From positions 3,037,501 to 3,101,500 of the forward strand of contig NC_011146.1 of assembly GCF_000020725.1 (NCBI RefSeq): DNA of 64,000 nucleotides, given 5' to 3'. Below, piece by piece: positions 1,268-56,760 of this stretch; position 1 is the first letter of the stretch, and each line of letters starts with the position of its first letter. This DNA comes from Citrifermentans bemidjiense Bem (lineage in GTDB: Bacteria > Desulfobacterota > Desulfuromonadia > Geobacterales > Geobacteraceae). The notes under the pieces were generated by a model. The model did not search any database. It saw only the letters and a program-made list of their open reading frames with translations, and was not told the origin of the DNA. Both the position numbers and the translations under genes were made by a program.

Positions 1268-1398
1268 TGACGGTTCCGGACGCACTCCGGCCGTTGGGGT
1301 CTCCTTTGCAAAAGGGAGGCACCGCCGTTTCCAGCGATACCCATAGGCCGGCCCACCCTGAGGGAGATCCCTTTTAGGCGCCACGGCTCGGAGACTGA
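1236..1398 (-). promoter_or_regulatory. Moco/Tuco-type riboswitch, promoter-distal copy
   Basis: Read on the minus strand, this segment carries the blocks CTCCGAGCC, GCGCCTAAAAGGGA, GCTGGAAACGGC, GGTGCCTCCC and AAGGAGACC in that order. As I remember the Moco RNA motif that senses molybdenum or tungsten cofactor, these are its conserved strings, and the arms around GGCCGG and CCGGCC could close the outer stems. It is followed directly by an intrinsic terminator and, about 400 nt on, by an AOR-family gene. The sequence is nearly identical to a second copy at 1464-1625. The family call is by motif recall; a covariance-model search was not possible. Confidence 0.82.
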
Positions 1399-1462
1399 TT
1401 TTCGGATTTTGGTTGCCGCTACACGCGCTCTCGCTTGGGTGCGGCTTCAAGTACAACAAACG

Positions 1463-1494: not shown

Positions 1495-1625
1495 TGACGG
1501 TTCCGGACGCACTCCGGCCGTTGGGGTCTCCTTTGCAAAAGGGAGGCACCGCCGTTTCCAGCGATACCCATAGGCCGGCCCACCTTGAGGGAGATCCCTT
1601 TTAGGCGCCACGGCTCGGAGACTGA
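1464..1625 (-). promoter_or_regulatory. Moco/Tuco-type riboswitch, promoter-proximal copy
   Basis: This is the first riboswitch met by a leftward transcript. It carries the same ordered blocks as the copy at 1236-1398 (CTCCGAGCC, AAAAGGGA, CTGGAAACGGC, GGTGCCTCCC, AAGGAGACC) with only a few differences over about 155 bases, such as GGGTGGGCC versus AGGTGGGCC. The near identity implies a recent duplication or ongoing gene conversion. Two complete aptamer-terminator units in series would give a sharper response than one; that consequence is inference from other tandem riboswitches. Confidence 0.82.
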
Positions 1626-1716
1626 CGTTTAAGTTTTTACAGAAACAAGGACGTGTCTGGCATGAAACCCGGCCTACAGTTCTGCCTTTACCAGTCCATT
1701 AACCATTTCTGGCAAA

Positions 1717-11473: not shown

Positions 11474-11553
11474 CAATTGACAATTGACAATTGACAATTG
11501 ACAACGTTTCCTCAGTCCACCGAGTCCATTTCGTCCATAGGGTCCATGCGGTC
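11474..11553. repeat. Short tandem repeats after emrB
   Basis: CAATTGA-type units run three times (CAATTGACAATTGACAATTG, 11474-11503). They are followed by five degenerate 9-base units of the form GTCCAtngg (about 11514-11553). The first family recurs inverted at 22902-22933; the second is the same unit as the clean array at 35127-35258. Confidence 0.75.
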
Positions 11554-22754: not shown

Positions 22755-22935
22755 ATTAAGATAAAGATAAAGATAAAGGAGAAGCTTTTTAACACTTCAA
22801 CCTATTCGTCGATACAGATCATTCAGGATCCCCACTCTCTTTCCAGAGCGGGAAGTGCGCCATAAACAGATGAGTGGCGATAGATAGTTGTTGAGTTTTT
22901 CGTTGTCAATTGTCAATTGTCAATCGTCAATTGGT
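22755..22935. repeat. Short tandem repeats between oligopeptide genes
   Basis: AGATAAA units run three to four times at about 22756-22780, and TTGTCAA units (TTGTCAATTGTCAATTGTCA then ATCGTCAATTGG) run at 22902-22933. The second set is the reverse complement of the family at 11474. The rest of the gap shows no gene. Confidence 0.65.
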
Positions 22936-35126: not shown

Positions 35127-35258
35127 GGTCCATTGGGTCCATTGGGTCCATTGGGTCCATTGGGTCCATTGGGTCCATTGGGTCCATTGGGTCCATTGGG
35201 TCCATTGGGTCCATTGGGTCCATTGGGTCCATTGGGTCCATTGGGTCCATTGGGTCCT
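35127..35258. repeat. Clean 9-bp tandem array, unit GGTCCATTG
   Basis: About 14.7 perfect copies of GGTCCATTG run head to tail over 132 bases between tlyA and the UbiD-family gene. The perfection suggests recent slippage expansion. The same unit, degenerate, occurs at 11514-11553. Frames reading it as Gly-Pro-Asn repeats are artefacts. Confidence 0.95.
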
Positions 35259-55418: not shown

Positions 55419-55784
55419 ATGCTACAGCTATCTTTAGACCTGTCAGGTAAGCCCGCTGTGTTCCTGAGCAACTCCCTCCGCTACTACAACGGGTTGAGCA
55501 GCCTGGCGATTTACCGCAACCCTCCCGAGCAAGCAGTTTCTCTAGTGCGGCTAAAAGAGGGGGTAGATCTGTACGAGCTGAAAATGGAGGGCGCCGTAAA
55601 TTATGATCGCCTCCAGATCAAGTTACGAGACGACGCGCGGAAACAGCTCACCGATCTGTTCAAGAAAATCCTCGCCTACCTGCAGATGGTTGCGACGGAA
55701 GAAGACATCCCCGCGCTGATGCAGGCAGGGATCGAAGTGAAGGGCCGTGCTCCCAGGAAAAAGACGGTGGTTGCACCGGCATAG
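55419..55784 (+). CDS. Small soluble protein of unknown function
   Basis: This 121-residue protein begins MLQLSLDLSGKPAVFLSNSL with AAGGAGG seven bases before the ATG. It is mixed beta then alpha (LYELKMEGAVNYDRLQIKLR, DLFKKILAYLQMVATEEDIP) and ends in a basic tail (GRAPRKKTVVAPA). There is no signal or membrane segment. I recognise no family. It is followed by a repeat-filled non-coding stretch, so it is probably monocistronic. Confidence 0.7.
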   Translation: MLQLSLDLSGKPAVFLSNSLRYYNGLSSLAIYRNPPEQAVSLVRLKEGVDLYELKMEGAVNYDRLQIKLRDDARKQLTDLFKKILAYLQMVATEEDIPALMQAGIEVKGRAPRKKTVVAPA

Positions 55785-55891
55785 AGTTAAACAACACAAT
55801 CAGGTGGCAAGTTTTCGCAAAGCGCCTTCAGGAATCCCGAAAGCTTATCCGGTTCCTGAAGGCGTTTTCGTCCCCACTCCCTCAAAGGCAC

Positions 55892-56032
55892 TCACCACAG
55901 AGGTACACAGAGGTACACAGAGGTACACAGAGGAACCACAGAGGAAAGGCAATAGGCTAAATCCTGTTTTTACCACGAAAAATCTTGTGATTTTCCTGCT
56001 TCTGTTTTTCCTCTGTGATCCTCTGTGTTCGC
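55892..56032. repeat. ACAGAGGTAC direct repeats and CTCTGTG cluster
   Basis: ACAGAGGTAC occurs three times in a row (55897-55927), followed by ACAGAGGAACCACAGAGG, and then facing CCTCTGTGATCCTCTGTG at about 56009-56027. The facing halves could fold together. Same degenerate family as 19925-20155. Confidence 0.7.
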
Positions 56033-56138
56033 AGCCCCCCGCATATCAAAATTGGACAGCGGTGTTCGCGAGACGCTGCTCCCACCAACACACTCCGTAC
56101 TCCCACCCTCGTTGATTGATATCCATATGGGTTTCCTC

Positions 56139-56760
56139 GGGCCTCCGTTTCCGCTGATTAGATCTCCGTTGAGTGTAGCTGGCGTGACGTATAATCTTAA
56201 CGGTATGCCGCTTTACCTTAGTTGGAGCTCCGTTCAAGGAAGTTGGAGCGCCGTTATGTCTAGATGGCGCTCCGCTTAACTTTTTCGTAGCTCCATGCAA
56301 CATAAACGGCATGCCGCAATTTCTATTTGGCACTCCACTTTTACTAATCGGAGGTCGCAGTTTCGGTTGAGCGTCGTACCGTACAAGTAAATTGGAGCAC
56401 CAGTTAAACTAACCGGCATGCCACATAAGTTAAACAGCCCTCCACTTTTGTTAACCGGAGCACCACTTTTGTAAAACGGACCTCCATCACAGCCTATCGG
56501 TCTGCCATAAAAATGAAATCGGCGCTACCTTACAACCTATGGGAGCTCCCACTCCCCTCGAACAGACCACTGTTAAATTTATCCGGACCTCCAACTTCTT
56601 TACACGGCATGCCATCCATGGTGAACGGAGCATCAACATTTTTAAACGGCATGCCGCTTAGCTTGATCGGACCACCGGTTTTGTATATCGGAGCACCGTC
56701 TTGGTTAAGCGGAGCACCACTTTAATTGAACGGCCCTCCGTTTTAATTGAACGGCATTCC
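56139..56760. repeat. Array of about 30 units: GGNNNNCC cores phased every 21 bp
   Basis: Cores of eight bases with outer GG and CC recur at 56139, 56160, 56181, 56202, 56224, 56245, 56266, 56287, 56308, 56329, 56350 and so on to 56753. Most intervals are exactly 21 bases; the exceptions are a few of 22 or 23. Many cores are full palindromes (GGCATGCC five times, GGAGCTCC twice) and others near-palindromes (GGAGCACC, GGACCTCC). The 13-base spacers are AT-rich and often end in AAC or ATC. In one frame the units read as heptads Gly-x-Pro-x-x-x-x, but stops and frame jumps break any long frame. The array may be a decayed heptapeptide-repeat gene or a non-coding protein-binding array. Confidence 0.88.

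What the first reader, a model, noticed from the sequence alone, without database searches (positions are those of the whole stretch)
56139..56760. Thirty GGNNNNCC cores phased at 21 bp, exactly two helical turns
About 620 non-coding-looking bases carry a strict 21-base rhythm of small palindromic cores with variable centres and AT-rich 13-base spacers. All cores would face the same side of the helix, ideal for cooperative binding by a protein. Alternatively the units are heptad codons (Gly-[Ala/Met/Pro]-Pro-x4), readable on both strands because the core is palindromic. Frame jumps of one or two bases at four places and stops at TTTAATTG argue that no long protein is made now. It is unlike CRISPR, REP or ordinary tandem repeats, since the repeated part keeps symmetry more than sequence.
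Basis: partly seen in the sequence, partly recalled or inferred. Interest (0 to 1): 0.75.

Follow-up and report, generated by a model that had tools for sequence, protein, structure and literature searches.

The report
Helically phased repeats beside orphan genes
A 620-base stretch of a soil bacterium's chromosome carries thirty small near-palindromes two DNA turns apart, and it turns out to be one case of a wider pattern in which genes of an uncharacterised small-protein family sit beside their own array of roughly 21-base repeats.

Summary
In detail: window 56139-56760 has 30 units (21 perfect GGNNNNCC) spaced 25x21, 3x22 and 1x23 bp. The array is non-coding: phase breaks recur at the same places in most of seven diverged copies, and no intact heptad ORF was found in 277 genomes of the class. 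In most copy-to-copy comparisons the GG and CC letters evolve about half as fast as the spacers.

The array is half of something larger. It lies downstream of a 121-aa gene (55419-55784) without a recognised domain. Its family has 73 members in 9 genomes and occurs in all 19 genus genomes searched. Of the 73, 57 have a 20-22 bp (or doubled) array alongside (53 downstream, 4 upstream), against 0 downstream and 3 upstream of 352 control ORFs. Mean unit is 20.97 bp, two turns of B-DNA. Repeat sequences differ between loci, yet units are enriched for dyad symmetry. In 2 of 5 genomes tested, a distant array matches the gene-linked array of its own genome better than its orthologues.

Best reading: phased dyad sites on DNA, bound cooperatively by a dimer, probably the neighbouring gene's product. 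Binding and cellular role are untested.

The parts
56139..56760 (.). Array of 30 units, GG-N4-CC core plus about 13-bp AT-richer spacer, period 21 (a few 22, one 23)
56139..56286 (+). Left arm: most spacers begin with G and end with T
   Evidence: unit list; similar to the reverse complement of the right arm (reverse-strand self match, reverse-strand matches between copies)
56394..56760 (-). Right arm: most spacers begin with A or G and end with C, i.e. units mostly in the opposite polarity
   Evidence: unit list
55419..55784 (+). 121-aa gene (MLQLSLDLSGKPAVFL...), member of the array-linked orphan family; a GGAGG stretch lies just before its ATG
   Evidence: no Pfam family (as the 136-aa ORF from 55374), no NCBIfam family
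55823..55868 (+). 12-bp inverted repeat with an 18-base loop followed by TTTT, a possible terminator between gene and array
   Evidence: read from the sequence; the hairpin rule (loops of 3-9 bases) does not flag it
55883..56060 (.). Stretch with CACAGAGGTA repeats and matching CCTCTGTG copies, between gene and array, with no counterpart in the C. bremense locus; approximate ends; not part of the array

Best explanation
The array is a non-coding DNA element: about thirty weak dyad sites (GG-N4-CC) set two helical turns apart so that they face one side of the helix. Shown: the rhythm; slower evolution of the GG and CC letters while spacers drift at about the synonymous rate; shared breaks of reading phase; and the general linkage of roughly 21-bp arrays, each with its own repeat, to members of one orphan protein family. 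Inferred: a protein dimer binds each dyad, and neighbours cooperate through the helical phasing, so that low specificity per site is made up by number. The most likely ligand is the product of the adjacent gene (here the 121-aa protein at 55419-55784), each paralogue being matched to its own repeat; arrays elsewhere in some genomes would be further sites in trans. Which cellular process this serves is not known; my guess is a local nucleoprotein filament that represses or insulates the locus.
For: Rhythm far beyond chance. GG/CC letters differ less than spacers, e.g. window-L033 16/100 against 128/328, and also when only G/C letters are compared, 14/93 against 61/157; for window-L033 this holds in all three segments between phase breaks. 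Gene-array linkage: 57 of 73 family genes (53 downstream, 4 upstream) against 0 downstream and 3 upstream of 352 control ORFs; without the eight profile seeds 49 of 65. Mean unit 20.97 bp, 13 of 53 best lags not multiples of three. Dyad enrichment over 54 arrays, mean rank 0.287 where 0.5 is expected. Unit similarity rises with protein identity, 0.43-0.44 below 50% to 0.78 above 80%. Distant and gene-linked arrays of the same genome share 0.51 (G014) and 0.35 (G002) of their 10-mers, against 0.02-0.10 between orthologous sites of different genomes.
Against: No binding data. The family core has no recognised DNA-binding domain, and the single-sequence structure model is useless (mean pLDDT 38.6). 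A basic stretch after the core is modest: mean net charge +2.5 in 30 residues, AT-hook-like motif in 2 of 73. 14 of 73 genes show no array by the criterion and 2 had too little flank. A family gene was detected beside only 5 of the 13 array loci. G007, G006 and G009 show no clear within-genome excess of shared 10-mers. In L031-L035 the slower GG/CC rate is significant in one of three segments only, and window-L030 is not significant.
Confidence: 0.5

Rival explanations
1. RNA element: the array is transcribed and folds, as a long rod of the two inverted arms or as strings of small hairpins.
For: Consensus folding energy beats locally shuffled columns: minus strand -61.2 against -23.8 (sd 4.0), plus strand -44.1 against -18.4 (sd 4.2). 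Single sequences fold better than 12 shuffles each (output partly cut). In L069 adjacent units form a strong inverted repeat.
Against: The covariation term is not better than the shuffles' best (-1.3 against -4.3; plus strand equal to the mean). Spacer positions do not covary, and positions 8 and 20 pair less than expected. Core-core registers disagree between elements. Constant 20-22 bp period over unrelated sequences is not needed for RNA. Nothing above gathering score in Rfam at the array.
Confidence: 0.15
2. The array is DNA sites, but the ligand is a general nucleoid protein or another regulator, and the adjacent family protein does something else (for instance at the surface, as FN3-tailed members might suggest).
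For: Family core has no recognised DNA-binding fold; 34 of 73 members have C-terminal extensions over 60 aa, and fn3 is called in one by Pfam's cutoff (L094); arrays exist without the gene.
Against: One general ligand does not explain why repeat sequences differ from locus to locus and follow the protein phylogeny, nor the tight gene linkage.
Confidence: 0.2
3. Neutral or selfish repeats: minisatellites that arise by slippage or move about and happen to be tolerated beside these genes.
For: Left-arm copy number differs between close species (window 30 units, L030 41); spacers drift at about the fourfold-site rate; intergenic direct repeats are common in this species (PMC2996986, section read).
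Against: Slower change at GG and CC, period held at 20-22 bp over unrelated sequences, and linkage to one gene family.
Confidence: 0.13
4. Decayed gene for a Gly-x-Pro heptad protein.
For: GG and CC would be the constrained letters of Gly and Pro codons; several 21-bp arrays are open in more than one frame.
Against: Shared phase breaks and in-frame stops; GG/CC constraint on both sides of the breaks for window-L033; no intact heptad ORF in 277 genomes; best lags of 22, 40, 41, 43 and 44 bp in the class.
Confidence: 0.02

Closest known systems
Plasmid iterons with their Rep protein (recalled; review PMC4980987 seen only as a search listing)
   Same: Direct repeats of about two helical turns beside the gene of a small protein, each system with its own repeat.
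   Different: Chromosomal, commonly 7 or more and up to over 20 copies, dyad-enriched; family protein matches no Rep family in the libraries used; several different pairs per genome; no sign of replication function tested.
sopC-type centromere arrays of ParB/SopB (recalled)
   Same: Tandem palindromic sites at a fixed helical spacing (43 bp, twice 21.5, in sopC by recall).
   Different: No parA/parB neighbour seen, many unrelated repeats per genome.
REP/BIME palindromes with RAYT transposases (recalled; PMC2817692 and PMC8266576 seen only as listings)
   Same: Intergenic near-palindromes; one array (L120) lies beside a gene that I take by eye for a RAYT-like transposase.
   Different: Units are tandem at 20-22 bp and not dispersed copies of one palindrome; the linked family is not a transposase by the libraries used.
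Multicopy nucleotide sequences of Geobacter bemidjiensis (PMC2996986: one section and passages read)
   Same: Reports intergenic direct repeats of 6-42 nt and palindromic families in this species.
   Different: The text read mentions no phasing, no gene family and no constraint. Coordinates are in supplements that I could not read, so this array may be listed there.

Membership tests
Plasmid iteron system | Direct repeats of roughly 17-22 bp in tandem beside a gene | tested here: met
Plasmid iteron system | Adjacent gene encodes a Rep initiator | tested here: not met
   No Rep family for the 121-aa protein or relatives in Pfam, NCBIfam, PHROGs or PADLOC (NCBIfam for two proteins, PHROGs and PADLOC for five)
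Plasmid iteron system | Protein binds the repeats | not testable with these tools
   needs a binding assay
CRISPR array | Identical repeats separated by unique spacers, cas genes nearby | tested here: not met
   Cores vary and units are 21 bp; genes around the window array are a histidine kinase, the 121-aa gene and a PEP-CTERM protein
REP/BIME with RAYT | One palindrome dispersed in many copies, made by a linked transposase | tested here: not met
   One window-type array in the own genome; linked family matches no transposase
ParB/SopB centromere | Adjacent parA/parB pair | tested here: not met
   Neighbours and Pfam results show none beside the window array
Known structured RNA | Match to an Rfam model at its gathering score | tested here: not met
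   below-cutoff hits only (e.g. RF03189, 20.9 bits, cutoff 51)
Heptad-repeat protein gene | Open frame through the repeats | tested here: not met
Multicopy sequences of G. bemidjiensis (2010) | Listed in Table S6 or Figures S1-S9 of that paper | not testable with these tools

The most novel reading that the evidence does not exclude
A fast-diversifying protein-DNA recognition system in Citrifermentans/Geobacter: each genome keeps several paralogues of an orphan protein, most of them paired with a private array of dyads set two helical turns apart; protein and array (and sometimes distant satellite arrays of the same genome) change together while period and symmetry stay fixed.
Probability: 0.4. 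Interest if true: 0.9.

Novelty: categorically new. Interest (0 to 1): 0.8.

Why it matters
If the pairs are true binding partners, nature supplies dozens of parallel protein-repeat pairs with one fixed helical geometry: a test bed for how DNA recognition evolves and how weak phased sites build cooperative complexes, and a possible toolkit of orthogonal binders. It would also account for part of the unexplained intergenic repeats of Geobacter genomes.

Tried and rejected
Heptad-coding gene: rejected. Long RNA rod and adjacent hairpins: not supported. Rfam: nothing above gathering score at the array. Phage and plasmid DNA collections: no match to the array. Protein-mode hits in three Sinorhizobium plasmid records (E 0.02) and one Pseudomonas phage (E 1) look like unrelated repeats favoured by the Gly-x-Pro query. 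Dyads seen by eye in other 21-bp arrays: mostly not significant one by one, significant only over 54 arrays. A first impression of many 21-bp arrays genus-wide came from a heptad query that selects such repeats; unbiased samples held few. Constraint on the whole array against synonymous sites: slight only (two comparisons there with the G000 kinase were mis-framed and dropped). Selection on spacing through rarity of indels: not shown, since indels are rare in the flank too. Viral contigs: no relative. Single-sequence structure prediction: useless. The 17 extra loci were placed by an assumed position; one search shows truncated genes for L271 and L281, so I do not count that set.

Full report
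What is there. The window lies in a single-contig genome of 4,615,150 bases. By recall that is the size of Geobacter (Citrifermentans) bemidjiensis Bem; relative G006 is Citrifermentans bremense R1, since contig titles and lengths match its contigs. Window 56139-56760 has 30 units, 21 of them perfect GGNNNNCC, spaced 25x21, 3x22 and 1x23 bp, with lag-21 autocorrelation 0.48 against a shuffle maximum of 0.32.

Copies elsewhere. By DNA search the own genome has one such array. Of the 58 genomes (own included), G006 and G009 have three each (L030-L035). A search with L031 finds the family in 3 of 19 genus genomes, own included. Window, L030 and L033 lie downstream of the 121-aa gene. L031 and L035 share a site 3' of a histidine kinase. 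L032 lies between a sigma54-type regulator and trpE, and L034 next to a transporter gene (gene names by my reading). In the own genome the histidine-kinase site instead holds a different, AT-rich array of about 21 bp beside another family gene, and the L032 site holds about 230 bp in place of about 1.2 kb. The seven copies align unit by unit (about 470 compared positions). The two arms have opposite polarity.

Not coding. Spacings other than 21 recur at alignment column 244 in 5 of 7 copies and at columns 482-504 in 6 of 7, so reading phase was broken before most copies diverged. In-frame stops of the Gly-x-Pro frames number 3-11 on one strand and 2-14 on the other per copy. A 68-aa heptad query hit 6 of 277 genomes: the three array genomes and three weak ones. 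Of the weak ones, two lie in open frames that on inspection carry no heptads; the third holds a stop.

What is constrained. Taking unit positions from one sequence only, GG/CC letters differ less than spacers: window-L033 16/100 against 128/328; L031-L032 12/102 against 88/331; L031-L035 14/102 against 79/330; window-L030 4/100 against 25/328, not significant. With G/C letters only, window-L033 is 14/93 against 61/157. Between the phase breaks, window-L033 shows the effect in all three segments (1/28 against 37/118; 9/36 against 66/153; 6/36 against 62/153), L031-L035 clearly in the first only (2/28 against 29/117; then 6/36 against 31/153 and 5/37 against 38/152). Spacers in window-L033 drift about as fast as fourfold sites of two nearby genes (19/51 and 43/111). 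So what is kept is a spaced GG-N4-CC rather than a sequence.

RNA tests. Folding energies beat shuffles, but the covariation term does not. Spacer positions do not covary, and positions 8 and 20 pair less than expected, as a mixture of two orientations would give. Core-core registers disagree between elements; three to four of nine arrays reach p of 0.02 or less on the minus strand, at different registers. Rfam has nothing above gathering score at the array.

The gene family. A diverged array of G007 (L070) used as query found matches in 6 of 19 genus genomes. In L070, L162, L163 and L164 the neighbour is a homologue of the window's 121-aa protein, 53-60% identical. Two arrays met in evenly spaced samples, L094 and L120, lie beside longer relatives with a fibronectin-III-like end (fn3 above Pfam's cutoff in L094 only). 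A profile of the shared core, 56 positions, found 73 members in 9 genomes, and members in all 19 genus genomes and in 22 of 277 class genomes. Weak database hits for the 121-aa protein: PADLOC Drt1a, 13.2 bits, E 0.0027, over 55 residues; two PHROGs at E 0.3. I treat these as chance.

Association test. For all 73, with 2.2-kb flanks where the contig allows, I scored the best autocorrelation in 900 bp on each side. At z of 7 or more and lag 19-23 or 39-46, 53 have a downstream array and 4 an upstream one; 14 have neither and 2 had under 300 bp downstream. Several of the 14 show weaker lag-21 or 42 signals. Controls were mechanical ORFs of at least 250 aa in the random pieces of G000 and G007: 706 found, 400 drawn, 352 with full flanks; 0 have a downstream and 3 an upstream array. 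These controls often have coding flanks, so they are not matched intergenic DNA, and the families' own genes in L094 and L120 are shorter than the limit. Eight of the 73 were seeds of the profile; without them 49 of 65. In the own genome 8 of 9 members have an array by TRF. Arrays start a median 188 bp after the stop (54 TRF arrays); a hairpin-plus-T rule finds a terminator before 14 of the 54.

Properties of the class. Best lags are 21 (24 arrays), 42 (16), 41 (5), 40 (3), 43 (2), 44 (2), 22 (1); as single units the mean is 20.97 bp, equal to two turns of B-DNA at 10.5 bp (general knowledge). Unit sequences are unlike between loci, but dyads are enriched: mean rank 0.287 where 0.5 is expected (54 arrays, z -5.4); 0.268 for 40 arrays after dropping 14 orthologue partners (z -5.1). 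One by one most are not significant. Unit similarity is 0.43-0.44 for protein identity below 50%, 0.51 at 50-65%, 0.65 at 65-80%, 0.78 above 80%.

Within-genome matching. An array between an MFS-type gene and a superoxide-dismutase-type gene (names by my reading) is present in G007, G014 and G002 (L069, L161, L165). Its share of 10-mers in common with the gene-linked array of its own genome is 0.51 in G014, 0.35 in G002 and 0.07 in G007, against 0.02-0.10 between orthologous sites of different genomes. G006 (0.05-0.12) and G009 (0.02-0.05) show no such excess. So 2 of 5 genomes support concerted change, which gene conversion or a shared ligand could both cause.

Arrays without the gene. Of the 13 loci, a family gene was detected near 5 (L070, L071, L074, L077, L078). 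The other 8 have none detected with the six queries; L072 ends at a contig end and has the same unit as L071. The linkage runs from gene to array more strictly than from array to gene.

Mechanism. Shown: phased dyads, constraint on GG/CC, linkage to one gene family, similarity of arrays that follows the protein. Inferred: binding by a dimer on DNA, cooperation through helical phasing, and the neighbouring protein as ligand. The structure model is too poor to help; a basic stretch follows the core on average (net +2.5 over 30 residues). I put the whole chain at 0.5, and the gene-array linkage itself above 0.95.

Literature. The genome paper of G. bemidjiensis, in the section and passages read, notes intergenic direct repeats of 6-42 nt and leaves their meaning open; the one fibronectin passage shown concerns riboswitch-linked genes. 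Two sister papers were read in passages only. The listings of searches showed no paper on this linkage. Supplements were not readable, so I do not claim that the array is unlisted. I rate the gene-array pair categorically new because no family that I tested meets its defining features; if the 2010 supplement or an unread paper already describes the pair, that rating falls.

Noticed in passing
window 1285-1405 and 1512-1632, minus strand: Two molybdenum-cofactor riboswitch matches in tandem (62.2 and 63 bits, cutoff 36).
   Followed up: no
window 35127-35257: Perfect 9-bp repeat GGTCCATTG, 14.6 copies.
   Followed up: no
window 11474-11504 and 22903-22933: Heptanucleotide repeats CAATTGA and TTGTCAA, 4.4 copies each; the same units appear in other samples of this genome (L084, L095, L102).
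   Followed up: no
window 55883-56060: CACAGAGGTA repeats with complementary CCTCTGTG copies about 100 bp on: a possible small inverted-repeat insertion between the 121-aa gene and the array, not seen in the C. bremense locus.
   Followed up: partly
L129 3410-3700 (own genome, 3' of a histidine kinase): AT-rich array of about 21 bp (CTATTCC-like) beside a 216-aa family gene, at the site where C. bremense and G009 have a GGNNNNCC array.
   Followed up: partly
L120 14700-15300: Array of about 20.5 bp lying between a 238-aa family gene and a 332-aa gene that looks by eye like a RAYT-type transposase.
   Followed up: no
L033 1779-1847, minus strand: int-alpA RNA match beside an integrase-like gene in G009.
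   Followed up: no
L058 1-109 (end of Pseudomonas phage vB_PaeM_ZGC record): 22-bp direct repeats containing GGAGCACC at the record end, outside any annotated gene; probably unrelated.
   Followed up: no
L073, L075, L076, L079, L080, L081: Arrays of 20-21 bp with no family gene detected nearby: orphan arrays or independent repeats.
   Followed up: partly
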